A DNA stretch of 64,000 bases from Prosthecobacter dejongeii (lineage in GTDB: Bacteria > Verrucomicrobiota > Verrucomicrobiia > Verrucomicrobiales > Verrucomicrobiaceae). The stretch lies in the NCBI RefSeq assembly GCF_014203045.1, contig NZ_JACHIF010000004.1:1-64000 (forward strand), given 5' to 3'. Made by a program: the position numbers and the translations under genes. How positions within the stretch are numbered: position 1 is the stretch's first letter; each line of letters begins with the position of its first letter. Shown in pieces: positions 45,394 to 64,000 of this stretch. Under the pieces are notes generated by a model. The model made no database searches, was not told the origin of the DNA, and was given only the letters and a program-made list of their open reading frames with translations.

Positions 45394-45409
45394 TCTGTGA
45401 ACAACCTTT

Positions 45410-46705: not shown

Positions 46706-46723
46706 TGCAGGATTCAGGTTTTT

Positions 46724-47725: not shown

Positions 47726-47998
47726 GAGGTCGGGAGAAAAAGGAAGGTCTGAAAGCTAAGAGGCAGCGGCGAAACTGGCAACCTGAATGGCATTGTTTCC
47801 GTACCTGGGCACGATTTAGCTCCAAGGTGCTTTCGGGTAGCTCGGTCCCTGGAGGCCTCCGTTTTTGCCCCTTGGGCGGTTTTTCGCAGGCTGCCGCCTT
47901 CCAATCCACGTAGAAATCGCCTAAATCTGCTCCCTTATTCACATCTCGGCTAAAAAAACCTTGCCGTTTGTGCATTTGCCGCCACCTTCGCGGCCCCT
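47726..47998. other. Intergenic region upstream of rpmI
   Basis: 273 bases between the leftward kinase and rpmI. It holds promoters for both. No strong Shine-Dalgarno precedes the rpmI ATG at 47999 (the last bases are CGCGGCCCCT). I see no convincing terminator or riboswitch here. Confidence 0.35.
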
Positions 47999-48217
47999 AT
48001 GTCCAAAAACGCTGGTATAGCAAAAACGAGAAAAGCTTACTCTAAACGGTTCAAAGTAACTGCAACAGGTAAGGTGCTCCGCCGTAAACAAGGCAAGCGC
48101 CACATCTTGCAGAACAAGAGCCGCAAACGTAAGCGTAACCTCGGTAAAGTCGCCCTCGTGGCAGAAGTGGATAAAGCAGGTGTGCTGGCAAATATGCCAT
48201 TCTCACATCGCGGTTAA
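47999..48217 (+). CDS. rpmI: Ribosomal protein bL35
   Basis: A 72-residue basic protein of the large ribosomal subunit. KTRKAYSKRFKVTATGKVL and RRKQGKRHILQNKSRKRK, then R-N-L, are hallmark segments. It is next to rplT as usual, but infC, which often precedes rpmI, is not in the preceding region. Confidence 0.97.
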   Translation: MSKNAGIAKTRKAYSKRFKVTATGKVLRRKQGKRHILQNKSRKRKRNLGKVALVAEVDKAGVLANMPFSHRG

Positions 48218-48222
48218 TCCAC

Positions 48223-48239
48223 GGTCCCCTAGCGGGACC
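48223..48239 (+). other. Hairpin just after the rpmI stop
   Basis: GGTCCC (48223-48228) pairs with GGGACC (48234-48239) over a CTAGC loop. No T-run follows, so it is not a terminator. It is the first of several stems in the rpmI-rplT spacer. Confidence 0.6.
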
Positions 48240-48240
48240 A

Positions 48241-48300
48241 TGATGCTCCGGTCTGGTTTCACGCGTGTGAAAGCCTCAGATCAGGTGAGGCCGGTCATCA
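48241..48300 (+). promoter_or_regulatory. Foldable multi-branch RNA element before rplT
   Basis: The spacer can form an outer stem, TGATG (48241-48245) with CATCA (48296-48300) and CCGG (48248-48251) with CCGG (48291-48294). Inside it are two hairpins: TTTCAC/GTGAAA (48257-48262 with 48267-48272) and GCCTCA/TGAGGC (48273-48278 with 48286-48291); one base is shared between the last stem and the outer one. Ribosomal protein L20 is known to repress its own operon by binding mRNA that imitates 23S rRNA, so this may be such a site. The fold is read by eye and not tested. Confidence 0.5.
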
Positions 48301-48335
48301 AATCCATAACAACAGCCTGCTCAGAGAAATAGAAA

Positions 48336-48722
48336 ATGCCAAGAGCCACCAACGCCCCCGCTAGCCGCAAACGCCGCAAGCGCACACTCGCTAAAGCCAA
48401 AGGCTTTCGCGGTTTCCGTTCCACCCATTTCCGTTATGCCAAGGACGCTGTCCGCAAGGCAATGACGTATTCCTACCGTGACCGTAAGGTCCGTAAGCGC
48501 ACCTTCCGCAACCTGTGGATCCAGCGTATTAACGCCGCTGCGCGTAACGTTGGCATCACCTACAGCCGTCTCATGGAAGGTCTGAAGTTTGCCGGAATCG
48601 AAATCGACCGCAAAGTGCTGTCCGACATCGCCATCAAGGATGAGGCCGCCTTCGTCGCCCTCGCCAACCAGGCGAAAGCAGCGATGGAGAAGAAAAACGA
48701 GCGGGTCAAAGCTGCTGCTTAA
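48336..48722 (+). CDS. rplT: Ribosomal protein bL20
   Basis: A 128-residue protein needed early in large-subunit assembly. [20 protein letters not shown], then [20 protein letters not shown] and [19 protein letters not shown] are family-defining. The C-terminal tail is slightly longer than in E. coli (118 residues). It can also act as a translational repressor of its operon in other bacteria. Confidence 0.97.
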
Positions 48723-48750
48723 TTCTCAATCTACGATTCTTTAACCCAGA

Positions 48751-48785
48751 CAGCCGGAGCTCACGCTCCGGCTGTTTTGTTTTTT
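48751..48785 (+). terminator. Strong Rho-independent terminator after rplT
   Basis: CAGCCGGAGC (48751-48760) pairs perfectly with GCTCCGGCTG (48765-48774) over a TCAC loop, followed by TTTTG and seven T. It ends the rpmI-rplT unit. Confidence 0.93.
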
Positions 48786-48842
48786 TGGGGGACCGCTGGC
48801 CTTAGCGGTGGATTTGCCTGCCCGTTGTTTTAGTGTCAGGCC

Positions 48843-49601
48843 ATGATTTTGGACACCATTCACGGATTGATCGAAAGAAGGGTGCTACTCAATTACCGGA
48901 TTGCCCCAGACATCCTCTCTCAGGTGCTGCCCAGGCCCTTTCGTCCGAAGCTGTATTCAGGTCACGGAGTGGGAGGTGTGTGCATGATCCGTTTTGGCCA
49001 GCTCCGTCCTCGTCTGCTACCCTCATGGCTCGGAATGGCCTCGGAAAATGCTGCGCACCGCATTGCAGTGGAATGGGACCAGGATGGCACCGTGCAAGAA
49101 GGCGTTTACATCCCCAGGCGTGATACGAATTCCTTGTTCAACAAGACCTTGGGGGGAGTGGTTTTCCCTGGCATCTTCCAGCGCAGCCAATTCCAGGTTC
49201 AAGAATCTAAAACCCATCTTTCACTCTCGGTTCTGCGCCAGGATGGCGGCACGGAAATCGCGTTCAGAGGGAGTCTTGCCGGGGCCTTGCCCGCGCAAAG
49301 CATCTTCCCGTCCCTCGCGGAGGCTGCCGGATTCTTTTCTTTGGGGGCCACTGGCTACTCCGCCACGCATTCTCCTGGCCACTATCACGGCATGGAGCTT
49401 CGCTCTCACGACTGGACGATTGCTCCACTGTCCGTGGATTCCGCCCAATCATGCGTCTTTGACGATCCACAGTATTTCCCAGCAGGTTCTGCGGAAGTGG
49501 ATTGTGCCCTTCTGATGCGTGGCATCTCTCATGAATGGCATAGTCGCCCAGATCTATATCTCTCCGTGGACGGTGATTCGCTAACGAGCCGGAAACCATA
49601 A
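48843..49601 (+). CDS. DUF2071 / acetoacetate decarboxylase-like protein
   Basis: A 252-residue protein. GLIERRVLLNYRIAPDILSQ, then VLPRPFRPKLY, GVGGVCMIRFGQLRP and SPGHYHGMELRSHDW match the DUF2071 family, a fold related to acetoacetate decarboxylase. No catalytic Lys of the decarboxylase is evident, and the function of DUF2071 proteins is not established. It is convergent with the aldo/keto reductase, separated by a hairpin. Confidence 0.82.
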   Translation: MILDTIHGLIERRVLLNYRIAPDILSQVLPRPFRPKLYSGHGVGGVCMIRFGQLRPRLLPSWLGMASENAAHRIAVEWDQDGTVQEGVYIPRRDTNSLFNKTLGGVVFPGIFQRSQFQVQESKTHLSLSVLRQDGGTEIAFRGSLAGALPAQSIFPSLAEAAGFFSLGATGYSATHSPGHYHGMELRSHDWTIAPLSVDSAQSCVFDDPQYFPAGSAEVDCALLMRGISHEWHSRPDLYLSVDGDSLTSRKP

Positions 49602-49628
49602 AAAAGCCACGCCCTTTCAGGCGTGGCT
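49600..49628 (-). terminator. Terminator of the leftward redox operon
   Basis: AGCCACGCC (49605-49613) pairs with GGCGTGGCT (49620-49628) over a 6-base loop. On the minus strand it is followed by U residues (A-run at 49600-49605 on the + strand). It lies 24 bases past the aldo/keto reductase stop. Confidence 0.85.
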
Positions 49629-49651
49629 GGGTAGGAGTCGAAGCCTCTGCT

Positions 49652-50686
49652 TCACTTCACGGGAAACGGGTTCCGCTCATCGAAACCGACCTGGTGCCAG
49701 TAGGGGTAGGTCTTCGGTTTGTCGCTGGCGGCGTCCAGTTTCGCCACCTGCTCGGTGGTGAGGTTCCAGCCGACGGCACCCAGATTCTGGCGCAGTTGTT
49801 CCTCATTGCGGGCACCGATGATCACCGTGGAGACGGTGGGGCGCTGCAGCAGCCAGTTCAGCGCCACCTGGGGCACGGACTTGCCGGTTTCCCCGGCCAC
49901 TTCGTCCAGTGCATCCACCACCGTGTAAAGGTACTCGTCATCCACCTGCGGGCCATACTGGTTGCTCAGCGTGTAGTTCAGGCGGCTCGTCTCAGGCCGT
50001 GGCTGATTGCGGCGGATCTTGCCGGTCAGGCGGCCCCAGCCCAGAGGGCTCCAGACAACGGCACCGATCTTCTGGTCCAGGCCCAGGGGCATCAACTCCC
50101 ACTCGTAATCGCGGCCGATCAGCGAGTAGTAAGTCTGGTTCGCCACATGGCGGGAAAGGTTGAACTTCTCCGCATAAGCCTGCGCCTTCATGAGCTGCCA
50201 GCCGGAGAAATTGGAGGCCCCGATGTAGCGGATCTTGCCCGCGCGCACCAGGTCATCCAGCGTGTTCATCACCTCTTCCACCGGAGTCATGGCATCGAAG
50301 CCGTGGAGTTGGTAGAGGTCAATGTAGTCGGTGCCCAGGCGCTTCAGACTGTTTTCCACGGAGCGGATGAGGTGCCAGCGGGAGGAGCCCACATTGTTTG
50401 GTCCTTCGCCCAGGCGAAAGGTGCCTTTGGTGGAGATCAGCACTTGGTCGCGCCGTCCCTTGATGGCAGCACCCAGGATCTCTTCGGCCATGCCGTCGGA
50501 GTAGATGTCCGCTGTGTCAAACATGGTTAGGCCATTTTCCAGGCTGATGTCAATGAGGCGGGAGGCTTCGGCCACATCGGACGCGCCCCACTCTTTGAAG
50601 AATTCCGTGCCGCCGCCAAAGGTGCCTGTGCCGAGGGTAAGGGCGGGGACTTTGAAGCCGGAACCGCCGAGTTGTCTGTATTCCAT
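49652..50686 (-). CDS. Aldo/keto reductase
   Basis: A 344-residue NADPH-dependent reductase. The opening YRQLGGSGFKVPALTLGTGT, FDTADIYSDGMAEEILG (Asp, Tyr of the catalytic tetrad), VLISTKGTF (Lys), DLYQLHGFD (His) and IIGARNEEQLRQNLG are standard. It lies third in an operon after the old-yellow-enzyme and luciferase-like genes. The family reduces carbonyl compounds; substrates cannot be told. Confidence 0.92.
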   Translation of the reverse strand: MEYRQLGGSGFKVPALTLGTGTFGGGTEFFKEWGASDVAEASRLIDISLENGLTMFDTADIYSDGMAEEILGAAIKGRRDQVLISTKGTFRLGEGPNNVGSSRWHLIRSVENSLKRLGTDYIDLYQLHGFDAMTPVEEVMNTLDDLVRAGKIRYIGASNFSGWQLMKAQAYAEKFNLSRHVANQTYYSLIGRDYEWELMPLGLDQKIGAVVWSPLGWGRLTGKIRRNQPRPETSRLNYTLSNQYGPQVDDEYLYTVVDALDEVAGETGKSVPQVALNWLLQRPTVSTVIIGARNEEQLRQNLGAVGWNLTTEQVAKLDAASDKPKTYPYWHQVGFDERNPFPVK

Positions 50687-50719
50687 AATCGTCTTGTTGT
50701 GTTTTTAGTTAGGGGGAAG

Positions 50720-51739
50720 TCAGGCGCGTGCTTTTTGCAGATCTTGGAAGACCTTGGCCGCAATTTCAAACGAGTGCAGCCGGGCCTGCGGATCGTGAAT
50801 GTGTGCCGTCGCTATGATTTCATCGGCTTCGGTTTCGTCCAGCAGGGATTCGATCTGGAAGCGCAGGGATTCCGGGCTGCCCACGGCAGAGCAGCGGGTC
50901 ATTCGGCTCACCTGCGCCTCCTCCACCGGATTCCACAGCGCATCAATGTCATCCACTGGTGGTTGCAGTTGCTTCGGCCAGCCCCGGATCAGATGCAGAA
51001 AGACCTGCTGCAGAGAACTGAAGAGCCGGGTGGCCTCCTCATCCGAATCGGCGGCAAAGACATTCAGACCCACCATGACATGAGGCTTGGCCAGGGTGGC
51101 TGACGGGCGGAAATGGGTGCGGTAGATGCCGATGGCCTGATGCAGCATCTCGGGGGCAAAGTGGGAGGCAAAGGCAAAAGGCAGGCCCAGCTCTGCCGCC
51201 AAACTGGCGCTGAATGTGCTGCTGCCTAACAAATAAAGCGGCACGTTCAATCCCTGGCCGGGAATGGCCCGCACTTTTTGCCCCGGCAGGGCAGGGGAGA
51301 AGAAGCCTTGCAGTTCCTGCACATCTCCCGGGAAGGTATCGCCACTGCTGCCTAAGCCCCGGCGCAGGGCGCGGGCAGCGCTCTGATCTCCACCCGGCGC
51401 ACGGCCCAGCCCCAGGTCAATGCGCCCTGGATACAGGGACTCTAGCGTCCCAAACTGCTCGGCAATCACCAACGGCGCATGGTTTGGCAGCATGATGCCG
51501 CCTGAGCCTACACGGATGGTGGACGTGCCGCCCGCGATGTAGCCGATGACCACGGAGGTGGCCGCACTGGCCACACCGGGGATGTTGTGATGCTCCGCCA
51601 GCCAAAAGCGGTGATAACCCCATTTCTCCACCTGCTGTGCCAGCTTTAGCGAATGGCGGAAGGAATCTGCCGCCGTCTCACCCTGCAAAATGGGGGCAAG
51701 ATCCAGCACGGAATAAAGCAGGCCGGAGGAAGTCTTCAT
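50720..51739 (-). CDS. LLM-class flavin-dependent oxidoreductase (luciferase-like)
   Basis: A 339-residue FMN/F420-type TIM barrel. Signatures: [73 protein letters not shown]. Overlap with the OYE stop (ATGA, 51736-51739) shows coupling. The family covers alkanal monooxygenases and flavin-dependent reductases; without a partner the reaction is unknown. Start chosen as the first ATG. Confidence 0.9.
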
Positions 51740-52785
51740 AACACAGGGTAATCGGTGTAGCCCACCGGGCCGTCCGCATAGAACGTCGTCGGGTCTGCGG
51801 GATTCAGCTCGGCTCCTTGGGCAAAACGTTCTGGGAGGTCCGGATTGGCGATGTAGGGGACTCCGAAGGCGACGGCATCGGCATCACCAGCGGCCAGGAT
51901 CTCATTGCTGGATTCCAGGGTGAATTTTTCATTCGCCACATAGAGGCCACCAAAAGCTTTCTTTAGCGCCGGTCCGATGCTGTCTGGGCCCTGACGCTCA
52001 CGCGCACAGATGAATGCGATCTTCCGCTGTCCCAGCTCACGGGCGACATAACCAAAAGTTTCGAGCGGGTTTGCATCCCCCATGTCATGGGCATCGCAGC
52101 GCGGGGCCAGGTGCATGCCTACACGATCTGCGCCCCAGACTGAGATCACGGCATCGGTCACCTCCAGCATCAGCCGCGCACGGTTTTCCACGGAGCCACC
52201 GTAGTCGTCCGTGCGTTGGTTCGTGCTCGTCTGTAGGAATTGATCCAGAAGGTAGCCATTGGCCCCATGAATCTCCACGCCGTCAAAACCAGCCTCCAGG
52301 GCATTTTGTGCGCCTTTACGATAGGCTTCGATGATGCCTGGCAGCTCGGCCAGTTCCAGCGCACGAGGTGTGACAAAGGGCTTTTCAGGCCGCACCAGGC
52401 TCACGTGGCCTGCGGGACGCACGGCACTCGGGGCCACAGGTAGGGCACCATCCAGAAAGATCGGGTCTGAGACACGGCCCACATGCCAAAGCTGCAAAAA
52501 GATGCGTCCGCCAGCCTCATGGACTGCCTGGGTCACCAGTTTCCATCCGGCTACCTGGGCAGCGGACCAGATGCCCGGTGTGTTGGCATAGCCGACCCCC
52601 ATGGGAGTCACAGAGGTGGCCTCGCTGAGGATCAGGCCAGCGCTGGCACGCTGGCGGTAGTATTTGGCCATCAGCGCATTCGGCACGCGCTGGCTGCCCG
52701 CCCGGCTGCGGGTAAGGGGAGCCATAAAAATGCGGTTGGGCAGGAGCAGGGGACCGACTTGGAGCGAATCAAAAAGTGTAGGCAT
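51736..52785 (-). CDS. Old yellow enzyme-type alkene reductase
   Basis: 349 residues from the ATG at 52785, preceded by AAAGGA at a suitable distance; a TTG at 52806 is an alternative. It belongs to the NemA/OYE family: [70 protein letters not shown] (FMN and substrate contacts). It reduces activated alkenes, nitro compounds and quinones with NAD(P)H. It is first of three flavin/NADPH enzymes in one operon. Confidence 0.93.
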
Positions 52786-52800
52786 AGGGTTTGTTCCTTT

Positions 52801-52855
52801 GTTCAAGAATACGGAACTAAAGAATCATTGAACTGCAAGCAAAATTGTGTAGAAT
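52801..52855. promoter_or_regulatory. Operator and promoter between the redox operon and the ArsR-type gene
   Basis: GTTCAA (52801-52806) and TTGAAC (52828-52833) form an inverted repeat 21 bases apart. On the + strand TTGAAC also serves as a -35 with TAGAAT (52850-52855) as -10, 16 bases away, predicting a start of transcription near 52862. A dyad over a divergent promoter next to an ArsR-type gene is the expected position for repressor binding. Read by eye. Confidence 0.5.
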
Positions 52856-52861
52856 GTTTTT

Positions 52862-53194
52862 ATCAGACCTCTCCACCATCCTCCCGTTGAAAGCATCACC
52901 GTCGCAGGCGTCCTTCATGCCCTGTCAGATCCGGTGCGTCTCAGCATCGTGGCGGAGCTGCGCAAGGCCGAGGACGGCCTGAACTGTGTGGAGACCACAA
53001 GCCGTCTAAAGTGCCCCATGCCGAAGTCCACCTGCTCCCAGCATTACCGCATTCTGCGGGAATCGGGCGTCATCCACAGCGAGCGGCGCGGGGTGGAGCT
53101 GACCAGCCGTGTGCGGCGCAAGGAACTCGACAGCCGCTTTCCCGGCCTGCTGGACTCCATCTTAAAGGCCTGGAAAAAAGAGCACGAAGTTTAA
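52862..53194 (+). CDS. ArsR-type winged-helix regulator (start codon uncertain)
   Basis: A small DNA-binding repressor. The frame from 52862 encodes RPLHHPPVES, ITVAGVLHALSDPVRLSIVA and a wHTH body (KSTCSQHYRILRESGVI). Relatives of this type begin close to M-x-R-P-L-x-H-P, so the conserved N-terminus starts where only ATC is available (52862). The first ordinary start, GTG at 52934, would remove about 24 conserved residues including ALSDP. An ATG at 52854 is out of frame by one base after five T. So the start is non-canonical, or a base is missing in the T-run. It is divergent from the OYE operon and followed 6 bases later by the exporter, and probably controls both. Confidence 0.7.
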   Translation: MRPLHHPPVESITVAGVLHALSDPVRLSIVAELRKAEDGLNCVETTSRLKCPMPKSTCSQHYRILRESGVIHSERRGVELTSRVRRKELDSRFPGLLDSILKAWKKEHEV

Positions 53195-53200
53195 AGTTTC

Positions 53201-54655
53201 ATGACACCTGAGACCGCGCCCTCTGCTGCCTCATTGGCCGCCCCTTCGCCGTCTCTGGCCATTCTGCCCTGGCTTGTTGCCGTGGCTCTGTTCATGGAAA
53301 ATTTGGATGCCACCATCCTGAACACGGCGGTCCCCACCATGTCTGCCAGCCTCGGTGTGGAGCCATTGAGCCTGAAGTCCGTCCTCACCAGCTACACCCT
53401 CAGCCTCGCTGTCTTTATTCCTGTCAGTGGCTGGATGGCGGACCGCTTTGGCACCAAACGGGTGTTCTCCCTGGCCATCGTGCTTTTCACCATCGGCTCG
53501 CTGCTCTGTGCCGTAGCCTATAATCCGCCCATGCTGGTCGTCTCCCGCATCATCCAGGGCATGGGTGGGGCCATGATGATGCCGGTGGGCCGCATCGCCC
53601 TAGTGCGTTCCTTTCCCCGCTCGGAGATGCTACGCATCACCACCTACGTCATCATCCCGGCGCTCATCGGTCCCTTGATTGGTCCTTCACTCGGAGGGGC
53701 CATTATTCACTGGTTTTCCTGGCGCATCATCTTTCTGCTGAATGTGCCCTTTGCCATCGTGGGCCTCTGGCTGGCGCACCGCCACATGCCGGACTTTAAG
53801 GATACCCAGGCCCCGCCTTTGGACCGTGCGGGCTTCGTGCTTTTCGGAGCTGGCATTGCCCTTCTTTCCTATGTGCTGGAAGTCTTTGGCGAGCACTCTC
53901 AGCCGCCCCTCGTGCTTGCAGGAATGACCCTTGTCTCGGCCATCCTTCTCACAGCCTACTGCCGTCATTCCCGCCGCGTGGCCAGGCCCCTCCTGGCCGT
54001 GCACCTCTTTACCATCCGCACCTTTCGTCTCTCTGTGCTTGGTGGCTTCATCACCCGCCTGGGCGTCGGCGGCATGCCCTTTCTGCTGCCCTTGCTGTAC
54101 CAAATAGGCCTCGGCTTTCCCCCGTGGCAGGCTGGTTTGCTCACCATCCCACTGGCCTTGGCCGCCATTGGCATGAAGGTCATCAGCCGTCCACTGCTGG
54201 CGCGTTTTGGTCATCGCACCGTGCTCATCGTAAACACCGTTTTGTTAGGCCTCACCATCACCGTCTTCACGCAGGTGGGGCCTGGCACCTCCATCGCGAT
54301 GATCATCCCTCTCAGCTTCGCCCAGGGTTTCTTGTCCTCACTCCAGTTCACCAGCATGAACACCCTCATCTTTGCAGATGTGGATGATCGCGAAGCCAGT
54401 AAGGCCAGCAGTCTCGCCAGCACCGGTCAGCAGATGTCTGCCAGCTTTGGCGTGGCCCTCGCCTCCATGCTCACTGCCTGGTTTCTAGGCGGGCTGAATC
54501 AGACCGACCCCGCCCAGACGGTGCCAGCCCTGCATCGTGCCTTCCTAACAATGGGCATGCTCACCATGCTTTCCTCCTTCACATTCTGGGGCCTGAAAAG
54601 TAGCGATGGCGACAACGTCAGCCTCCACCATTCCCCCTCCCAGCCTGAGGCCTAA
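53201..54655 (+). CDS. DHA2-family (EmrB/QacA-like) MFS drug exporter
   Basis: A 484-residue membrane protein with about 14 hydrophobic segments. MENLDATILNTAVPTM is the DHA2 motif D1 region, SGWMADRFGTKRVF is motif A, and RIIQGMGGAMMMPVGR is motif C-like. It should pump hydrophobic compounds out in exchange for protons. Coupling with the ArsR-type gene suggests induction by the same electrophile or drug that drives the divergent reductases. Confidence 0.93.
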   Translation: MTPETAPSAASLAAPSPSLAILPWLVAVALFMENLDATILNTAVPTMSASLGVEPLSLKSVLTSYTLSLAVFIPVSGWMADRFGTKRVFSLAIVLFTIGSLLCAVAYNPPMLVVSRIIQGMGGAMMMPVGRIALVRSFPRSEMLRITTYVIIPALIGPLIGPSLGGAIIHWFSWRIIFLLNVPFAIVGLWLAHRHMPDFKDTQAPPLDRAGFVLFGAGIALLSYVLEVFGEHSQPPLVLAGMTLVSAILLTAYCRHSRRVARPLLAVHLFTIRTFRLSVLGGFITRLGVGGMPFLLPLLYQIGLGFPPWQAGLLTIPLALAAIGMKVISRPLLARFGHRTVLIVNTVLLGLTITVFTQVGPGTSIAMIIPLSFAQGFLSSLQFTSMNTLIFADVDDREASKASSLASTGQQMSASFGVALASMLTAWFLGGLNQTDPAQTVPALHRAFLTMGMLTMLSSFTFWGLKSSDGDNVSLHHSPSQPEA

Positions 54656-54675
54656 CGATCATTTGCAGCCGCTTC

Positions 54676-56784
54676 TCAGCGCCAGATCTCACCTTTGGCA
54701 GGGTCCCCAATTATGTCCAGCACCTGGACTTTGCTGATGCTGGTGAATCGGGCATGGTCGGTAAACTGGCGGACGATTTTTTTCTGCTCGTCCAGCTCGA
54801 AAAATTGAGCGGTGGTGCTCAGGTAGCCATGGCCAAGCCAGTTGATGACGATCGTATGACCATCGGGCAGACGCTGAAAGCCGCTGATTAGCCGGAGCGG
54901 GTTGTTGGGCACTTCCTCAGTTCCGATTTTCCACACGGTCTTGCCTTCACGATCCAATTCGATGAGAGCCTCACCCTCGCCGCAGGCGATGAGAAGATGG
55001 CCATTTGGAAGCTCCAGCACTTCATGCGGATCTCCGGGGGTTTTGATTTCCCGAAGAAGTTTTCCTTCTGCACTGAGTTCGAGAACTGCACGGTCGCCTT
55101 TGGCGCTGATGAGATAGCGGCCATCCGGTGTGCGGCGGGAACCACGCATCTGATCATGCGTGTTCTGGGTCTTCAGCGGCACGGGAATCTCACGAGCGAT
55201 TTTACCGTCACGCGCGACTTCAATGAGTCGCTGAGTGCCGCATTCGACGACCATGACAGATCCATCAGGAAGAGGCTGGCAGCCATGAACTTCCGTTCTC
55301 TTTGGGCTGATGTATTCCCAGACGACTTTTTTCCCTAACGTCACTTCACGTGCTCCACGAAGATGGCTAAAGAGGATGTTACCATTGGCCAGCATCCACA
55401 CATCCTGGGGCTTCTCAGCCGGGTGCTCCCACTCCACGCGTCCGTCCGCAGCTATGATGGAAATCTTGTCGCCGCCGTAATCACTGACGAGCACCCTTCG
55501 ACCAAAAGGTGGCACATTGGCTGGCTCTGTGTGCAGGGCATCGCTAAGGTGATTGCGATTGTTACGCATGAGGGGTGGCTCAGGTTTTTCCCAGCCTGTC
55601 GGCGCACCAAAAATGACGACTGGTTTTCCTGTATTGTCGTGGATGCGGAGATTGTCATGGATGATGCCGTTCTTTGAGTGGCGCCAGCAGTGAATGGCAT
55701 TGCCCCCGCTTTGAATGACATTCCCGATCACTTCATAACCATCAAGGTTGAAGTTAGGCTCGATGGCGGTCACGGCCGTCTCCATGTAGTTGTGGTTGCA
55801 CTTCACTTGGCGCAAATGGCCACGAAAAGAGGGGTGCCCTAGTAGGTAGCCCGCACCGTTAGGATTTAGGGTGCGAGTGCGATGGATGGTGATGTTTTCG
55901 GCATCGAAAGACTCACCTGGAGTCACTTCACCCCCTGGAAGAAAACGGCCACTGTGCTCCCCATAGCACATCACAGAGCGGTTCGTGTCAGTCATTGTGA
56001 TGCCTTCAACGATGACATCGCGCACGCGCCCATGGATGAGAACGCACGCGTTGATGTCCTTGACCAGGAAACCTGGTTGCACGTTATGCGTGGCATTCAT
56101 GTCAATCGTGCCTTTGCCAGTGATGCGCACATTTTCAATGTAATCAGGCTGCCGACCATGACCGATGCGGATGCCATAGGCTTCCAGTCCATCATAGGTT
56201 ATAAACCAGCGACTGCCTTTATTGTGGCCAGTCTGGCTGCCAAAGCGAATTTTCACCCCGTGCTCCAGTTCCTGCCAGTCTCCGGTGATGCTAACTTTCT
56301 TGTGTGGTGTTTCACCGAACTTGCTTTCGGACGTGGCTAGCTTCGTTGTTCCCTCTGGGTTATCCACGTTGTGAAACACTCCCCAGGCGAACGTGTCTGG
56401 CTGCCCGTCACGGCCTTCGGAGTCAGTCACAATCGTGAAGATGGATGGACGTAGGAGATCAAATTGGCCACCTACCTCCATATCATCCAGCTTCTTCCCC
56501 GCATCTTGATCCGTGGTAATTTCGGGGGCTGCTTCGAGCTTGGTCGCTCTGTCAGCCAGCTTGAGCACGGCGCCTTCTTTCAGTTCGATCTCGACGGATT
56601 TGTCCACATACAACAGCGCACGATGCTTGACTGGAAGATGCCGATGTTCGCCGGGGAGAAACACGAGTCGATCCCCCGGCACTGCGCGGTCCATGATGGC
56701 TTGAGGATTGTCGCCAGGTTGGATGCGGTGCTCGGCGGCATAGACAAGCGGTGCAAGAACCAGCAAGCTGAGGAAGGTGCGCAT
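54676..56784 (-). CDS. Secreted beta-helix plus beta-propeller fusion protein
   Basis: 702 residues from the ATG at 56784 (signal MRTFLSLLVLAPLVYA); the longer frame overlaps the upstream gene's region. Residues about 20-400 look like a parallel beta-helix of the pectate-lyase type: RIQPGDNPQAIMDRAVPGD, HGRVRDVIVEGITMTDTNRS and NYMETAVTAIEPNFNLDG. Residues about 430-700 form a propeller with repeats such as WMLANGNILFSH, QPLPDGSVMVVE, ELPNGHLLIACGEG. Such fusions are not a common architecture. A carbohydrate-acting role is plausible, but catalytic residues cannot be assigned. It follows the SDR gene by 17 bases. Confidence 0.75.
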   Translation of the reverse strand: MRTFLSLLVLAPLVYAAEHRIQPGDNPQAIMDRAVPGDRLVFLPGEHRHLPVKHRALLYVDKSVEIELKEGAVLKLADRATKLEAAPEITTDQDAGKKLDDMEVGGQFDLLRPSIFTIVTDSEGRDGQPDTFAWGVFHNVDNPEGTTKLATSESKFGETPHKKVSITGDWQELEHGVKIRFGSQTGHNKGSRWFITYDGLEAYGIRIGHGRQPDYIENVRITGKGTIDMNATHNVQPGFLVKDINACVLIHGRVRDVIVEGITMTDTNRSVMCYGEHSGRFLPGGEVTPGESFDAENITIHRTRTLNPNGAGYLLGHPSFRGHLRQVKCNHNYMETAVTAIEPNFNLDGYEVIGNVIQSGGNAIHCWRHSKNGIIHDNLRIHDNTGKPVVIFGAPTGWEKPEPPLMRNNRNHLSDALHTEPANVPPFGRRVLVSDYGGDKISIIAADGRVEWEHPAEKPQDVWMLANGNILFSHLRGAREVTLGKKVVWEYISPKRTEVHGCQPLPDGSVMVVECGTQRLIEVARDGKIAREIPVPLKTQNTHDQMRGSRRTPDGRYLISAKGDRAVLELSAEGKLLREIKTPGDPHEVLELPNGHLLIACGEGEALIELDREGKTVWKIGTEEVPNNPLRLISGFQRLPDGHTIVINWLGHGYLSTTAQFFELDEQKKIVRQFTDHARFTSISKVQVLDIIGDPAKGEIWR

Positions 56785-56801
56785 GGTGGGTAGGTTTGGA
56801 G

Positions 56802-57542
56802 TTAGAGTTGAATCATCGGCTGTACTATCGGCCAGAGCTTGATCTCCTCCGCAACGAGGTGAGGTGGCATACAAGCGGTCTGAACGATGAGCTGGCCGAG
56901 GTCTGAAGGGGAGATGCACTGAGCGAGGATGACTGGATCGCGCGGGGGAAGGTTTACGGCTTCCGTAAACTCAGTCTGGCCCCATGAGGGTAAAACGGAA
57001 GTGACCCGCACACCATAAGGCCGTAACTCTGTGAGCAGACACCGTGTGAACATGAGTAGCCCCGCTTTGGCGGCCGAATAGATGCTCCATCCTGGCCAAG
57101 CATGTGTCGAGCAGGCACTGCCAATGTTGATGATGAGGCCGCTTCTTTGAGATTGCATGATCGCCGCCGCACGACGGCAGCCTAGCATCGCACCCGTGAG
57201 GTTACTGGCCAGGCTGCGAGCGATGGCTTCGTCCGTCTGGTCACTTGCCTGGCAGACTTTGACTCCTTCTCCCGCATTGTTCACCAGCACATCTAGCCTA
57301 CCTGTGTGTTGGATGACCTCTTCCATGAGTCTATCCCAGGCATAACCATCGGCAACATCGGCGGTAAAAGGAATCGCCCCGATATTCTGCGCGGTCGTTT
57401 GCAGTCTTTCCTGATCACGGCCCGTGATCCAGACACGGGCTCCTGCTTTGACAAAAGCTTCAGCAATGCCCGCGCCATAACCGCGTGAACCGCCTGTGAC
57501 GATAACCGAAGTATTCGTTAATTTTGATATGAGGGACTGCAT
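56802..57542 (-). CDS. Short-chain dehydrogenase/reductase (SDR)
   Basis: 246 residues from the ATG at 57542. VIVTGGSRGYGAGIAEAF is the NAD(P) loop, LDVLVNNAGEG follows, and the catalytic Ser-Tyr-Lys is in GSACSTHAWPGWSIYSAAKA. It oxidises or reduces an alcohol, probably a sugar acid or sugar. It starts divergently from the IclR regulator and is followed by the beta-helix protein, which suggests one regulated catabolic unit. Confidence 0.9.
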   Translation of the reverse strand: MQSLISKLTNTSVIVTGGSRGYGAGIAEAFVKAGARVWITGRDQERLQTTAQNIGAIPFTADVADGYAWDRLMEEVIQHTGRLDVLVNNAGEGVKVCQASDQTDEAIARSLASNLTGAMLGCRRAAAIMQSQRSGLIINIGSACSTHAWPGWSIYSAAKAGLLMFTRCLLTELRPYGVRVTSVLPSWGQTEFTEAVNLPPRDPVILAQCISPSDLGQLIVQTACMPPHLVAEEIKLWPIVQPMIQL

Positions 57543-57585
57543 TTGAAATGAAAGACAACATTCAAACGGTCGAAACCTGTGTTTG

Positions 57586-57606
57586 CAATCAAGAATCTTG
57601 TTTGAT
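57586..57606. promoter_or_regulatory. Dyad in the IclR/SDR divergent spacer, likely IclR operator
   Basis: CAAG-AAT-CTTG (57590-57600) is a perfect dyad nested in ATCAA...TTGAT (57588-57606). It lies 12 bases before the IclR start and about 45 bases from the SDR start. IclR regulators usually bind such palindromes between divergent genes. Assignment is by position and symmetry. Confidence 0.5.
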
Positions 57607-57617
57607 ATAAAAAACAC

Positions 57618-58427
57618 ATGCCTGCGGACCGTCGAGCCCCCCCCAACCCATTGAACCGATACCGGGTTCCGATTCTGGATCGCACGCTCGATCTTTTGGA
57701 GCTGCTCTCGCAGCATCCAGAGGGGCTCACTTTGACCGCAGTGACTGAGCGGCTGGCTATGCCTAAGAACTCCGTTTTCCGCATCCTTACCACGCTCACC
57801 CTGCGCGGTTATGCAGAGCGTGATGAGCCCACCAAGGCCTATCGTCTGAGCCGCAAGCTCCTATCTGTGAGTCACGGCGCCATCGGTGGCAGGCGTCTGT
57901 TGCAGGCTGCCAGTGGCATTCTCACCGCGCTGCGTGATGCCACAGGTGAAACGGCTCTGCTTGGAACTTTATCGGGTTCTCAGGGGGTTGTGTTGGATCA
58001 GGTGGTATCCTCATATCCAGTGAAAGTGGTGGTGGAGGTAGGTCACGCATTCCCACTGCACACAGCCGCACCTGCAAAAGCCATGCTGGCATTCATGCCG
58101 GAAGACAAACGGAATGCCCTGATCAAGGGGATCCATTTTACCAAACACACTAAAACTACCCTCACCTCAACCAAGGCTTTCGTAGCTGAACTCTCAGAGG
58201 TAAACAACAACGGTTATGCTCTTGATCGCTGTGAGGAGAGTGAAGCTTACGCTTGCGCAGCGGCCCCAGTATTTGATGCCAGAGAAGAGGTTATCGCTGC
58301 GATATGGATCAGCGGACCGAGTGATCGTCTGCCTCTCTCCAAACTGCCCGCTGTGGGTAAGATTGTCGCCGCTCATGCGGTAAAACTTTCTACTTCAATG
58401 GGCAGTCTTGATGCTCACTGCGGATGA
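57618..58427 (+). CDS. IclR-family transcriptional regulator
   Basis: A 269-residue regulator with N-terminal helix-turn-helix (LDLLELLSQHPEGLTLTAVT, then ERLAMPKNSVFRILTTL) and a C-terminal effector domain (HTAAPAKAMLAFMPEDKRNA; GYALDRCEESEAYACAAAPV, then FDAREEVIAAIWISGP). Family members sense small metabolites such as sugar acids or aromatic compounds. The divergent SDR and the beta-helix protein are the likely targets. Confidence 0.92.
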   Translation: MPADRRAPPNPLNRYRVPILDRTLDLLELLSQHPEGLTLTAVTERLAMPKNSVFRILTTLTLRGYAERDEPTKAYRLSRKLLSVSHGAIGGRRLLQAASGILTALRDATGETALLGTLSGSQGVVLDQVVSSYPVKVVVEVGHAFPLHTAAPAKAMLAFMPEDKRNALIKGIHFTKHTKTTLTSTKAFVAELSEVNNNGYALDRCEESEAYACAAAPVFDAREEVIAAIWISGPSDRLPLSKLPAVGKIVAAHAVKLSTSMGSLDAHCG

Positions 58428-59121: not shown

Positions 59122-59302
59122 AAAAGGTTAGGGCGTGGTTTTGTCGGAAATCAAAGGCAGCTCATTTCAGGGAATAAGGTGCCGCTCATATCTTCGACGA
59201 ATGAGCGAGCCGATGCAGGACACCCCATCGCTTTTTTTCATTAAAAACCTGCCCGCTTCAGCGGCCGTGGCCTCAGCCCACAGCCGCCCTACCAGCATCC
59301 AC

Positions 59303-60901
59303 TCACTCCTTCTTCGGCCCATCTGGGGCAGGGGATTTCTCCTTCTTCTCCACCCCCACCGTCGGCGCAGGCAGCTCCGCCACCAGAACCGCCGTGTCCG
59401 GGGCCTTGCCCGAGTAGAAGGAAACATAGTGCCTGTCGCCCATCACCGTCGCGTTCGCATTGCCCGCATCCCACATCACCTTGCTTCCCGTGCCCACCAC
59501 CTCAGAGGCAGGCCACTCCAGCGGATGGTCAAACACTTGGTTAGGCTCCACCACACGCCGCCGCAGCACTCCCTTGCCACGATGGTAGTAGTATTGGCTC
59601 AGTAGCCCCGTCTTCGCATCCAGCACCAGGCTCGGGGTCGATCCCGCCACATCCCCGATATTCGTCGGCCTGCGCACCCACGTCTTCCCGTAGTCCGTGG
59701 ATACGATCTGAAACTGCACCGGACCCGTCTCCGTCCGGGCGATCGCCAAAATCCGCCCCTCACCCAGAGACACCGCTGCCGCCTCCGTCGGCCACTGCGG
59801 CTTCGTTAGCCCCATCTCCATCGGCGTCTGCGTCCACGTCGCACCATCATCGCTACTCGTCACGATGCCCCACCCATTCGTCGGCTTGTCCCCATAGTCA
59901 CCGGAGAACCACAGCGCCATCAGCCCCACCGTCGGCACGGCAAAAACATCCGTGATCTGCATCGGCTGCACCGCCAGCTTCGGCGTCGCCAAAAGTGTAA
60001 ACGTCACCCCATCCGTGCTGCGGTACAGGTCGTGGTTCCACTCCTTCCCGATCCTCCGCACCCACAGCAGCATCGCCCCCGTCGAGTCCAAGCCCTTGCC
60101 CACCTCCACCTCCCCGTAGTTCGGCGTATTCGCCACCACCGTCTCCCGCGTCCACGTCTCGCCACCGTCCGTCGAGGTCCGTGCATACACCGCCCGCTCA
60201 TCATCGTTGATCGTGTGCGCCTTGCCCCGGCTATACACGCACACCAGCTTATCACCCAGGGCCTGGATCATCGGCCACGAATTGTAGCCGCCCCCATCCT
60301 GCACCACGTGCGTCTTCCCCGGCGCATCCACCGGTGTCACCTTCACCATCACCAGCCCCGTCGGGCGCGTAAACGTATCCCCCGCCTCACCCGGCTCCCG
60401 CTGGATCCTCACCCACAGCGGCGCATCCTCCACCACCTCGTAGTACGACTCCAGCAGGATCGTCCGGGAATGAAACGGCCCCGCAGGCAGCACCGTCCGC
60501 ACCGGAGTCCCCAGCACATACCGCGACATCAAAGGCGCACCCTCCACCAACTGCGACAGGTGCACCCGATACACATCCGCAAACTCCGCACTCGTCGCCG
60601 CGTCCGAAGTCGTCACCACGATCTCCACCTTCACCGCCTTGCACCCCCTCGGCAGCCCGCCCACCACCCCCGCCACCGACTGTCCCACCGTGCCCCCAGA
60701 AAGCGACCACACCGGCACATGCATCGATCCACTCGACATCAGCACCCGCGAAGGCTCACCCGTCGCGATGGATAAATCATTCGCCGTCAGGTAAACCGAG
60801 TCCCTCCCTCCCTTCGCCTCCGCAGGCAGGGCAACATCACTCGCCCCAAAGCAGGACAGATCACAGGCAAAAAAGGCAAAAGAGAGGCGATGAAAAAGCA
60901 T
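59303..60901 (-). CDS. Sialidase-like (BNR/Asp-box) secreted protein
   Basis: 532 residues from the ATG at 60901, where a signal-like segment (FHRLSFAFFACDLSCFGA) begins; a TTG at 60940 gives a longer form. Three Asp boxes are seen: TSTDGGETW, SSDDGATW and STDYGKTW. They sit in a six-bladed propeller fold of exo-sialidases. The N-terminal 200 residues look like a beta-sandwich. It may cleave terminal sugars or only bind them, since catalytic Tyr/Glu/Arg are not assigned. Codon use is very C-rich on the + strand, i.e. G-rich in the gene, unlike the neighbours. Confidence 0.82.
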   Translation of the reverse strand: MLFHRLSFAFFACDLSCFGASDVALPAEAKGGRDSVYLTANDLSIATGEPSRVLMSSGSMHVPVWSLSGGTVGQSVAGVVGGLPRGCKAVKVEIVVTTSDAATSAEFADVYRVHLSQLVEGAPLMSRYVLGTPVRTVLPAGPFHSRTILLESYYEVVEDAPLWVRIQREPGEAGDTFTRPTGLVMVKVTPVDAPGKTHVVQDGGGYNSWPMIQALGDKLVCVYSRGKAHTINDDERAVYARTSTDGGETWTRETVVANTPNYGEVEVGKGLDSTGAMLLWVRRIGKEWNHDLYRSTDGVTFTLLATPKLAVQPMQITDVFAVPTVGLMALWFSGDYGDKPTNGWGIVTSSDDGATWTQTPMEMGLTKPQWPTEAAAVSLGEGRILAIARTETGPVQFQIVSTDYGKTWVRRPTNIGDVAGSTPSLVLDAKTGLLSQYYYHRGKGVLRRRVVEPNQVFDHPLEWPASEVVGTGSKVMWDAGNANATVMGDRHYVSFYSGKAPDTAVLVAELPAPTVGVEKKEKSPAPDGPKKE

Positions 60902-60940
60902 GGTTTCCAAAAGACCTACTTCGCCAAACCCCCAATTCAA

Positions 60941-61169
60941 TCAGCCATCTTCCGCTTCGCCTAGAAATGAACCGTTGAGTTGTTAAATGTTATGTGGAGC
61001 TCCGATTTGAATGAGCTAATGTCCTATTATATGTGGAAAATCATCAGTGAATTTGGGGCGGCGGTGGTTTATGTGTTACATACATAGTTCCCCTGTATGG
61101 TCAGTGAGACTCATAGGAGTCATATCAGTCTGATCAATAACAGCTAAATAAAACACTATATCCTACCCA
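60941..61169. other. AT-rich intergenic region before the Gabija-type locus
   Basis: This 229-base stretch is visibly more AT-rich than the sialidase gene. It contains two dyads, CATACA (61079-61084) with TGTATG (61094-61099) and GACTC with GAGTC around 61108-61121. No ORF of note. A promoter for gajA should be here, but no clear sigma70 pair stands out. Confidence 0.4.
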
Positions 61170-63272
61170 ATGCCAATTCAAAAAGTCAGAGTGGAAGGAT
61201 TCCGGCTGCTGCAAGATGTGGAAATCCTACTGGAGTCCGTCTCAACCGTGATCGTGGGCCGGAACAACAGCGGCAAGACATCATTGACCGATGTATTCGA
61301 TCGATTCACGAGCGAGCGAAATACTCGTTTCCGGCTCGAAGACTTCTCGGCCGGAATCAGGCCGAAGTTCTTGGAAGCCAAGCGGCTTCGGGAATCAGGT
61401 GCTAATACGGTGGAGGTGCTTGATGCACTGCCGAAAATCGCTCTCACCTTGACTTTCGGCTATGACCCCAAAGCGACGGACTTGGGGCCTTTATCCCAGT
61501 TCATTATCGACCTAGACGCAGCGTCCACCATCGCCGTCGTGAAAGTCGAATATGCTCCCACCTTGGCATCCCTACACGCATTGTTCGATGTGCAGTCGCC
61601 AGCCGAAGGAGTAGACGCTGGATTGCATTTTTTGCGCGGCATTCGTGAGACGCTATCAAAAGCGTATACCGTCCAAGTCTCGGCAATCGACCCTACGGAT
61701 CCAACTAATAGGCGCCAGTTTGAAGGTTCATCAGCACTCTATAGCTTGATGCAGTGTGATTTTGTACGAGCTCAGAGGACGTTGGATCATGCTTCCCAAG
61801 GAGAAGCCGACGTGATCGGAAAGTTGCTAAGCACACTTTTTAAAACCGCACCGGCACCGACGGCCGCTGCCGCTGACCAGGAGCTTGCCGCGCAGCTCAA
61901 GACTTCGGTGGAGCGCATTGAAAGGAACGTACAAGGAGGCTTCGACGAAATGTTGAAGGGGTTGCTTCCAGCCATGGATGTGCTGGGTTTCCCAGGACTG
62001 AATGACACCGAGCTTCGACCTGAGACTTCGCTCAATGTAGAGGCATTATTATCCGACCACACTAAGATTGTATATACTGGAGCGGACGGCGTGCACTTGC
62101 CGGAAGGTTACAATGGCCTCGGAACGCGAAATTTGATCTATATGTTGTTGCAGTTGGAAAGCTACCACAAAGCATTCAGGGGCAAAGCAACCCGACCGGT
62201 GACACACCTGATCTTCATTGAAGAACCGGAAGCCCACCTTCATCCCCAGATGCAGGAAGTATTCATCAGCCAACTCAACGCCGCAGTAACCAAGTTGTCC
62301 GCTCACTATCCGGAAGAAGCCGCATGGAAGGTGCAGTTTGTAATAACAACCCACTCCTCGCATGTCGCAAATGCAGCCGCTTTCGAGGCAGTGCGGTATT
62401 TCCTCAACGAATCACCGCAGGGAACAGCAACACGACGCACTAAGATCAAGGATTTCAAGAAGGGCTTGAATCTCATTCCTCCCGACGATCAAGACTTCCT
62501 GCACCAGTATATGACGTTGACAAAGTGTGACCTCTATTTTGCCGACAAAGCGATCCTGGTTGAGGGAACCACCGAAAGGCTCCTGATGCCCAGGCTGCTC
62601 AACATCGTGGACCGTTCGCTGGACGAAAGCCGGAAATTGTGCAGACAATATGTGACGACCATCGAAGTGGGAGGCGCTTACGCTCACCTTTTCTATACTC
62701 TGTTGGATTTCTTGGAATTGAAGACCTTGGTAATCACTGACATTGATTCGGTGCGTGCTGCAACCACGATGGACAGGAATGGGAAATCCGTTACCAAGTG
62801 GGAGAAATGTCCCGTGGCACTCGGCGAGCGAACCTCCAACACCGCGATTAGAGAATGGTTCCGTCCGAAGGAGCAGACGAAGGAAGATGGCCAGCAGAAT
62901 GAGCCGGCTCCGGTCATTACCCCCGCTGAGTTGGCGGCGAAAACAGCTGACGACAAACAGGACGGCTTCCGCAGGCTGGCTTATCAGATTCCAGAGACGG
63001 ACGGCACGTCTGTCTGTGCCCGGAGCTACGAGGATGCGCTGGTCCTTGCAAATCCTGACAGATTCGAATGGCCAATGGAAGAGGATGAAGCAACCGAGGC
63101 GTGGTACATCGCAAAGGATCTACCCAAGGCTGAGACGGCTCTTCGCTTTGCGATTCGGGAAGCCGACTGGACTGTGCCGCGCTATATTCGCGAAGGATTG
63201 ATTTGGCTCGCTGAGCCACCTCCTCCCAAATCTGAGATTCCTCCAATTCAAACCGCTGAGGCAACCCGATGA
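61170..63272 (+). CDS. gajA: OLD-family nuclease GajA (Gabija-type, ATPase plus TOPRIM)
   Basis: A 700-residue protein with an N-terminal ABC/AAA ATPase domain and a C-terminal TOPRIM nuclease domain. Walker A is VGRNNSGKTSLTDVF near residues 30-44; the Walker B region is LIFIEEPEAHLHPQMQEV near 350; TTHSSHVANA is the switch His. TOPRIM has AILVEGTTERLL near 460 (catalytic Glu) and LVITDIDSVRA near 523 (Asp-x-Asp). Its UvrD-like partner overlaps the stop by 4 bases, matching class 2 OLD pairs, i.e. Gabija, which cuts DNA when nucleotides fall during phage attack. It is longer than the roughly 580-residue GajA of Bacillus. Confidence 0.85.
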   Translation: MPIQKVRVEGFRLLQDVEILLESVSTVIVGRNNSGKTSLTDVFDRFTSERNTRFRLEDFSAGIRPKFLEAKRLRESGANTVEVLDALPKIALTLTFGYDPKATDLGPLSQFIIDLDAASTIAVVKVEYAPTLASLHALFDVQSPAEGVDAGLHFLRGIRETLSKAYTVQVSAIDPTDPTNRRQFEGSSALYSLMQCDFVRAQRTLDHASQGEADVIGKLLSTLFKTAPAPTAAAADQELAAQLKTSVERIERNVQGGFDEMLKGLLPAMDVLGFPGLNDTELRPETSLNVEALLSDHTKIVYTGADGVHLPEGYNGLGTRNLIYMLLQLESYHKAFRGKATRPVTHLIFIEEPEAHLHPQMQEVFISQLNAAVTKLSAHYPEEAAWKVQFVITTHSSHVANAAAFEAVRYFLNESPQGTATRRTKIKDFKKGLNLIPPDDQDFLHQYMTLTKCDLYFADKAILVEGTTERLLMPRLLNIVDRSLDESRKLCRQYVTTIEVGGAYAHLFYTLLDFLELKTLVITDIDSVRAATTMDRNGKSVTKWEKCPVALGERTSNTAIREWFRPKEQTKEDGQQNEPAPVITPAELAAKTADDKQDGFRRLAYQIPETDGTSVCARSYEDALVLANPDRFEWPMEEDEATEAWYIAKDLPKAETALRFAIREADWTVPRYIREGLIWLAEPPPPKSEIPPIQTAEATR

Positions 63273-64000
63273 CCTCCGGCGCATTAAACCCGATTGTTGC
63301 AAATCCAGCCATTACCGCTGCGGAGGCTGCTCAGACTAAGGTAAACTCATGTTTGGAGGCAGGGCGTAGCTTTCGATTGGAGGCCGGTGCCGGAGCTGGC
63401 AAGACTTATTCGCTTGTTGCCGCGTTGAAGCGGCTTATTGCCGAAAAGGGGGAAGCGTTGATCAGAACAGGACAGAAGGTGGCTTGCATCACGTATACCG
63501 AGGCTGGTAGAGATGAAATTGCACAGGAGATCGAAGATCATCCTGCAATTCTTGTGGAGACAATCCATGCCTTTTCGTGGGGATTACTCAGACAGTTTCA
63601 GAAATCTCTTCGGGATATCGTGAACATGATGGAAGACAGGCGTCAAAAGATCGAGGCAGGGGGCGGTGTCGAGTCCAAGCTTGTGGACTACGATCTGGGT
63701 TTTTTTGGAGTGGACGATAAGCGGATCACCTTGGATCACGACGACATTCCACTGTTCATGGCGAAGCTGCTGAAAAACACTAAGTTTCAGCGACTTTTAA
63801 CTCAGCAATTCCCCGTTATTTTCATCGATGAATACCAAGATACGGATCGTGATTTCATGCAGGCGATCACCGATAACTTCTTGAGCACTGGTGACGGGCC
63901 GCTGATAGGTCTTTTTGGAGACCATTGGCAAACGATTTATCGCAGTGAATATGAACTCGCAGATTATCCAGTCGAAGAAATCGCCAAGGGCTCCAATTTT
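63269..64000 (+). CDS. gajB: UvrD-like helicase GajB, cut by the window end
   Basis: The first 244 residues of a superfamily 1 helicase that runs off the window. Seen motifs are FRLEAGAGAGKTYSLVAAL (motif I, Walker A), VACITYTEAGRDEI (motif Ia), VIFIDEYQDTDRDF (motif II, D-E-x-Q) and GLFGDHWQTIYR (motif III). The start overlaps the gajA stop (ATGA), so the two are translationally coupled. In Gabija the helicase partner couples ATP to the nuclease complex. The remaining motifs IV-VI lie beyond the window. Confidence 0.85.
   Translation, partial: MTSGALNPIVANPAITAAEAAQTKVNSCLEAGRSFRLEAGAGAGKTYSLVAALKRLIAEKGEALIRTGQKVACITYTEAGRDEIAQEIEDHPAILVETIHAFSWGLLRQFQKSLRDIVNMMEDRRQKIEAGGGVESKLVDYDLGFFGVDDKRITLDHDDIPLFMAKLLKNTKFQRLLTQQFPVIFIDEYQDTDRDFMQAITDNFLSTGDGPLIGLFGDHWQTIYRSEYELADYPVEEIAKGSNF

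What the first reader, a model, noticed from the sequence alone, without database searches (positions are those of the whole stretch)
61170..64000. Gabija-type defence pair in a Verrucomicrobiota chromosome
The OLD-type ATPase/TOPRIM protein keeps its catalytic Glu and Asp-x-Asp and is coupled by 4 bases to a UvrD-like helicase with intact motifs I-III. The nuclease is about 120 residues longer than the known GajA. It lies next to an AT-rich spacer and the window end, so more defence genes may follow.
Basis: partly seen in the sequence, partly recalled or inferred. Interest (0 to 1): 0.55.

Follow-up and report, generated by a model that had tools for sequence, protein, structure and literature searches.

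The report
Complete Gabija anti-phage gene pair
The end of this window carries an intact two-gene Gabija system, a common bacterial defence against viruses, probably gained by gene transfer and lying in a variable spot where close relatives carry other genes, some of them defence genes.

Summary
gajA (61170-63272, 700 aa) overlaps gajB by 4 bases. gajB is cut by the window end but complete in the genome: 63269-65035, 588 aa, all SF1 helicase motifs. PADLOC names both over nearly their full length (GajA 4.7e-278, GajB 1.6e-240). The TOPRIM Glu and Asp-x-Asp align with E379, D432 and D434 of solved Bacillus cereus GajA. The extra ~120 residues are ordinary for this branch: relatives 73-75% identical occur in Proteobacteria, and 18 of 19 relative loci examined have the helicase next door. 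The pair is a low-GC cassette (60973-65199). In the nearest relative this interval holds a BsuBI/PstI-type restriction-modification pair between 94% identical stretches of 1.7 and 4.1 kb; beyond these, gene order differs. Beside the same DUF1552 operon two further relatives carry a different Gabija pair and a SLATT-domain gene. The spot may be a small defence-exchange site, or simply variable. That more defence genes follow directly is not supported. Ordinary member of a known system; modest interest.

The parts
61170..63272 (+). gajA: ABC-ATPase plus TOPRIM (class 2 OLD) nuclease, 700 aa; Walker A about 30-38, E351/E352 Walker B, H395, TOPRIM E465/E469, G501-G502, D524/D526, K653 (motif names recalled or)
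   Evidence: fold search top hits are B. cereus GajA
63269..64000 (+). gajB, first 244 codons; the gene runs on to C4:65035 (588 aa), UvrD-like SF1 helicase
60973..61169 (+). AT-rich leader (39% GC) between the left cassette boundary and gajA; presumed to hold the promoter (the simple sigma-70 scan found no site on + in C4:60900-65500)
60972..60973 (.). left boundary of the exchanged cassette; 59287-60972 is 94.0% identical to the nearest relative G033. The right boundary lies outside the window at C4:65199/65200 (65200-69255 is 93.9% identical)

Best explanation
This is a complete, probably active Gabija anti-phage system gained by horizontal transfer. By analogy with B. cereus GajAB, GajA (ATPase plus TOPRIM nuclease) forms a tetramer on which GajB docks; GajB, an SF1A ATPase/helicase, acts on DNA ends or single strands, and the TOPRIM site of GajA nicks or degrades the invading DNA with metal ions. 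Shown here: intact genes, catalytic residues, motifs, overlap, family membership, foreign composition, other genes in the same interval of a close relative. Inferred: complex formation, nuclease activity, phage restriction, and the trigger. For the trigger I favour unprotected linear DNA ends (as proposed for P. aeruginosa PA14 Gabija; about 0.55) over nucleotide depletion (as proposed for B. cereus; about 0.3).
For: PADLOC GajA 4.7e-278 (residues 1-696) and GajB 1.6e-240 (11-578). Pfam AAA_15, OLD-like_TOPRIM and UvrD-helicase above their cut-offs. The profile aligns E465, E469, D524 and D526 with E379, E383, D432 and D434 of solved GajA (my count on the printed alignment; roles from passages of PMC10781630, and PMC10822852). 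Top fold matches are GajA chains: Foldseek 8x5i_B E 4.5e-18, VIA-align 8x5i_D Z 16.1 over 458 residues, rmsd 8.8. Helicase partner in 18 of 19 relative loci. Few homologues in kin: 4 of 115 genomes searched match at 1e-20, the own genome among them, the best other identity being 38%, while Proteobacteria have 73-75%. GC3 is 0.59 and 0.50 against 0.81 and 0.79 in the two genes that follow.
Against: No activity is shown; a model name is not a function test. A single-sequence search of PDB with GajA found three sequences at 1e-3 (an OLD protein, the retron Eco8 nuclease and an AAA ATPase of a retron complex) and no GajA; GajB found none. GajA and GajB of B. cereus appear only with profiles, so the distance to the tested system is large. 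UvrD_C is under its cut-off. NCBIfam has no model over its cut-off. The GajA model is of middling confidence (pLDDT 68.7), with Foldseek TM 0.36 and rmsd 18, and MukB heads nearly tie in Z (15.4) on the ATPase half. The GajB model failed (pLDDT 50.6). RecC, part of the enzyme in the PA14 model, had no match in this genome.
Confidence: 0.9

Rival explanations
1. A host DNA-repair pair (OLD-like nuclease with UvrD-like helicase) that processes broken chromosomal DNA and is not chiefly a defence system.
For: The ATPase half resembles RecF/Rad50/SMC heads, and the helicase is closest in PDB to UvrD and PcrA. A non-defence class of archaeal OLD ATPases is described (PMC12796447, start of abstract seen).
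Against: Sporadic: 4 of 115 genomes searched, own included, none of the others closer than 38%. Foreign GC, and restriction-modification genes in its place in the nearest relative. Relatives on conjugative plasmids and in a filamentous phage.
Confidence: 0.05
2. A mobile-element competition module that mainly excludes plasmids or rival elements, phage restriction being secondary.
For: 393 plasmid records carry relatives, 222 of them typed conjugative; a Pf phage carries a GajAB pair.
Against: Here the pair is on a 500-kb contig; none of the eight flanking genes scanned with Pfam is an integrase, transposase or conjugation gene. Plasmid carriage also fits a defence gene that travels on plasmids.
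Confidence: 0.15
3. An inactive remnant: intact frames but no expression or a broken partner interface.
For: No sigma-70-like promoter match on + in the scan (one promoter type only). Gene order around the pair differs from the nearest relative on both sides.
Against: Both frames are complete and the catalytic columns are kept.
Confidence: 0.07

Closest known systems
Gabija, branch of PADLOC PDLC00063 (GajA, 679 positions) and PDLC00113 (GajB, 579 positions)
   Same: Both proteins match over nearly the whole model; same order as in L011-L015 and the Rhizobium phaseoli plasmid, where the annotated genes also overlap by 4 bases.
   Different: GajA is 65-74% identical to its seven closest aligned rows. 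The three other GajA found in its own genus and family are 26-38% identical.
Gabija of Bacillus cereus VD045 (PDB 8sm3, 8jqb, 8x5i)
   Same: Two genes; ABC-ATPase plus TOPRIM with E379/D432/D434 kept; SF1A helicase partner.
   Different: GajA 700 against 578 aa; by the alignment about 63 of the extra residues lie before Walker B, about 23 more before the TOPRIM Glu, the rest after it. GajB 588 against chains of 493-499 aa.
Gabija of Pseudomonas aeruginosa PA14
   Same: OLD-like nuclease and UvrD-like helicase, both needed for defence (PMC12407980: abstract, Discussion and passages).
   Different: Sequence not compared here. PA14 Gabija acts in a RecBCD host; no RecC family match was found in this genome.
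Class 1 OLD, retron Eco8 effector, PARIS AriA
   Same: Shared ATPase and, for OLD and Eco8, TOPRIM kinship.
   Different: Much weaker scores: Old 98.7 bits, AriA 151 bits, Eco8 effector 53.8 bits with cut-off 250. That none pairs with a UvrD-like helicase is recalled, partly from PMC10781630 and PMC10568477.

Membership tests
Gabija | GajA: N-terminal ABC ATPase with Walker A, Walker B and H-loop | tested here: met
   AAA_15 4.3e-42; G30, G35-K36-T37, E351-E352 and H395 invariant in 18 rows
Gabija | GajA: TOPRIM with catalytic Glu and Asp-x-Asp | tested here: met
   OLD-like_TOPRIM 3.3e-15; E465, D524, D526 invariant and aligned with E379, D432, D434
Gabija | GajA: later residues D511 and K541 of B. 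cereus (alanine mutants inactive) | tested here: inconclusive
   E621/D622 and K653 are likely counterparts by spacing; E621 and K653 are invariant, but the alignment to B. cereus GajA stops at residue 442
Gabija | GajB: SF1A UvrD-like helicase with all motifs | tested here: met
   UvrD-helicase 4.7e-18; motif columns I to VI in the alignment (motif names recalled). UvrD_C is under its cut-off (22.0 against 25.6 bits)
Gabija | gajA and gajB adjacent, same strand | tested here: met
   4-base overlap; partner present in 18 of 19 relative loci, the exception being a 452-aa fragment beside an IS element
Gabija | Falls with GajA rather than stand-alone OLD | tested here: met
   23 of the 25 best PADLOC models shown are GajA, of 112 that match; Old 98.7 bits against 922.4
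Gabija | 4:4 GajA-GajB complex | not testable with these tools
   needs purified proteins; the known interface residues lie in parts that one search did not align
Gabija | Protection against phages that needs both genes | not testable with these tools
   experiment

The most novel reading that the evidence does not exclude
The interval upstream of the DUF1552-DUF1592 operon is a defence-exchange slot in this lineage. Four close genomes carry four unlike cassettes there (Gabija, a BsuBI/PstI-type restriction-modification pair, a second, very different Gabija pair, and a SLATT-domain gene with a DUF2971 gene), with no integrase seen among the genes scanned at the site, as if swapped by recombination in short conserved flanks.
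Probability: 0.35. Interest if true: 0.35.

Novelty: new member of a known kind. Interest (0 to 1): 0.17.

Why it matters
It adds a complete case of the long GajA branch in a host unlike those where Gabija was tested, with a close relative that marks both cassette boundaries. If the slot is a true exchange site, one address could be searched for further defence genes in this lineage.

Tried and rejected
Rejected: that more defence genes follow directly. After gajB come DUF1552 and DUF1592 proteins and two T2SSE ATPases (PF00437); PADLOC gave nothing for the first two and 18-29 bits for the T2SSE pair. Rejected: that the extra length is a new domain; aligned relatives of this branch share it.

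Led nowhere: close relatives in viral contigs (none; a search by short peptide patterns that finds close relatives only, as is); Rfam in the cassette (none at gathering score); repeats at the cassette ends that could be attachment sites (only short pairs); a second copy in the genome of the C-rich stretch before DUF1552 (one copy); a promoter scan (1 site, shuffles 3.9). The GajB model was too poor and no fold search was made with it. Absence of a fold from the lists is not used as evidence.

Weak points of the slot idea. Only G033 shares a stretch on both sides, 1.7 kb and 4.1 kb long. Beyond them gene order differs: 54678-58402 lies about 13.7 kb further off in G033, behind ORFs that do not look like defence genes (by eye, not scanned), and 45064-54656, which is left of the cassette here, lies on the other side in G033. 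For G042 and G041 only the DUF1552 side is shared. The next genome, G018, has DabA, an antiporter-like subunit and a LysR regulator there. Of 34 slots listed (three of 37 fetched places were left out as too short or without DUF1552, and one listed slot had no ORF), 3 were scanned as cassettes and 10 proteins from 7 others as a control: 1 of 10 had a weak match, an HNH protein of G009, 25.8 bits. The other 24 were judged by eye only. The SLATT gene of G041 matches reverse-transcriptase-associated models; I saw no such partner by eye but did not search for one. Its DUF2971 neighbour matches a candidate model weakly (30.6 bits).

Full report
Observation. One search lists a 700-aa ORF at 61170-63272 (+) and an ORF from 63269 that runs off the window. 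The own contig gives the rest: 63269-65035, 588 aa. Stop and start share ATGA.

Identity. PADLOC places the first protein with GajA PDLC00063 at 4.7e-278 over residues 1-696 and the second with GajB PDLC00113 at 1.6e-240 over 11-578. Of the 25 best models shown, 23 are GajA for the first (the others AriA and Old) and 24 are GajB for the second (the other RTasHel). Pfam gives AAA_15, OLD-like_TOPRIM and UvrD-helicase. NCBIfam has no model above its cut-off. A single-sequence PDB search misses B. cereus GajA and GajB at 1e-3; profiles of the alignments find both (GajA from 3.2e-15, GajB from 8e-16). On the printed alignment, by my count, E465, E469, D524 and D526 stand opposite E379, E383, D432 and D434, G501 opposite G409, K36 opposite K35, and H395 opposite H320. 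The roles of these residues come from passages of PMC10781630, PMC8136825 and PMC10822852. All but G501 (nearly invariant) are invariant in 18 aligned rows.

Helicase. Motif columns are invariant or nearly so in 16 aligned GajB rows: GAGAGKT (40-46), T75/T77, DEYQDT (187-192), GD...Q.I (217-223), N243/R245, T487...KG (492-493), YVSxSR (540-545); the letters are those of the window protein, and motif names are recalled. One row (L018) has no residues in the last block.

Structure. Foldseek ranks GajA chains first (8x5i_B, E 4.5e-18, TM 0.36, rmsd 18); VIA-align gives 8x5i_D Z 16.1, 458 residues, rmsd 8.8, over model 1-683. MukB heads reach Z 15.4 over the ATPase half, so only the span over both domains is telling. 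The GajB model failed (pLDDT 50.6).

Relatives and transfer. One search, which finds close relatives only, gave six loci, the best 75% identical, all Proteobacteria by their titles. In plasmids 393 records match, 73 over at least 80% of the query; in phages 8, one over 80%; in E. coli 20 of 5426 genomes at DNA level, none over 80%. I fetched 8 plasmid, 1 phage and 1 E. coli places. In 18 of 19 relative loci (6, 3, 10) a GajB-like helicase lies beside it; the exception is a 452-aa fragment beside an IS element. Among 115 genomes searched, 4 match at 1e-20, the own genome among them; the best other is 38% identical. In the tree of 18 GajA rows the window lies among proteobacterial sequences, and the copies from its own genus and family lie elsewhere; the fork at the window is open (90/97). 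In the GajB tree of 16 rows the window lies in a nine-row group with Proteobacteria (100/99), while G042 has a very long branch whose place is unsure. GC is 53% and 48% in the two genes against 62-63% in the host genes beside them, and GC3 0.59 and 0.50 against about 0.8. This supports horizontal gain; the donor is not identified.

The interval. In G033, the nearest relative by these flanks, 59287-60972 is 94.0% and 65200-69255 is 93.9% identical, with nothing alike between. Its interval of 3131 bases holds a BsuBI/PstI endonuclease (PF06616 1e-58) and an Eco57I-type methylase (PADLOC MTase_II 2.6e-164); a third ORF of 134 aa has no Pfam match. Outside these two stretches the order differs: 54678-58402 follows in G033 only after about 13.7 kb of other DNA, and 45064-54656 lies on the opposite side. 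The genes in those extra stretches of G033 do not look like defence genes (by eye). G042 shares the DUF1552 side and carries another Gabija pair there (GajA PDLC00093 3.8e-241, GajB PDLC00111 4.4e-204; 26-28% and 23-27% identical to the window's). G041 carries a SLATT_5 gene (2.2e-43) and a DUF2971 gene (2.5e-9). G018 carries DabA, an antiporter-like subunit and a LysR-type gene, without PADLOC matches. A DUF1592 homologue was found in 44 of 48 genus genomes; 37 places were fetched and 34 slots listed. Of 10 proteins scanned from 7 of the other genomes 1 had a weak match; 24 slots were judged by eye only. The slot idea is plausible, not shown, and the rearranged surroundings weaken it.

Mechanism. 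For B. cereus, GajA forms a tetramer with GajB docked on it, and mutations of their interface weaken defence. Two triggers are proposed: nucleotide depletion with abortive infection (reviewed in PMC10568477, its section 3), and attack on linear DNA not protected by RecBCD (PMC12407980, abstract and Discussion). A GajA of lactic acid bacteria degrades linear DNA without sequence preference (PMC13304284, passages). I favour the second trigger because it explains how self DNA is spared; the first has published support too. This genome has no RecC match and one 948-aa protein with a PDDEXK_1 domain that I read as AddB-like from its layout only, so the protecting enzyme here would have to be another one.

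Verdict. A complete Gabija system, probably active, of a known and widespread branch; the extra length is ordinary. The added finding is the cassette interval and the unlike genes, three of the sets defence-like, that close relatives carry there. Paper searches for Gabija with Verrucomicrobia (7 papers listed, none opened) and for a defence hotspot in that phylum (none) showed no description of this slot in titles or abstracts; that is a weak negative.

Noticed in passing
L010:15932-19515 (own contig C4:95932-99515): A two-gene candidate defence system, PADLOC PDC-M65A (8.6e-35) and PDC-M65B (3.4e-127), with no Pfam match at 0.001, about 31 kb beyond the Gabija pair.
   Followed up: partly
L073:7992-12246 (G042): A second, very different Gabija pair (GajA 758 aa, helicase 658 aa from the start used) beside the DUF1552 gene of a same-genus genome.
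   Followed up: yes
L072:6640-9115 (G033): BsuBI/PstI-type restriction-modification pair in the interval that holds Gabija here.
   Followed up: yes
window 45064-58402 and C4:65200-69255 against G033:C6:275486-320755: Gene order around the cassette is rearranged between the two close genomes, with about 13.7 kb extra in G033 on one side and a moved block on the other.
   Followed up: partly
L009:5285-5410 (C4:65285-65410): C-rich stretch with repeated CCCCA motifs and an ATCCCC-AAAT-GGGGAT palindrome before the DUF1552 gene; kept in G033 and, at 73%, in G042; one copy in the genome. Role unknown.
   Followed up: partly
own genome contig C10, about 55-129 kb: Several AAA_15 ATPase matches (C10:55300, 80150, 121440) and a PDDEXK_1 match in a 302-aa frame (C10:128499), with one of equal length at C3:171582; C10 may hold a defence island.
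   Followed up: no
L027 (Pseudomonas phage PfAC02b): A filamentous phage carries an annotated GajA-GajB pair, 29% identical in GajA.
   Followed up: partly
L075 (G018): The DUF1592 gene of G018 is listed with 3 in-frame stops over the match, while intact copies exist in relatives.
   Followed up: no
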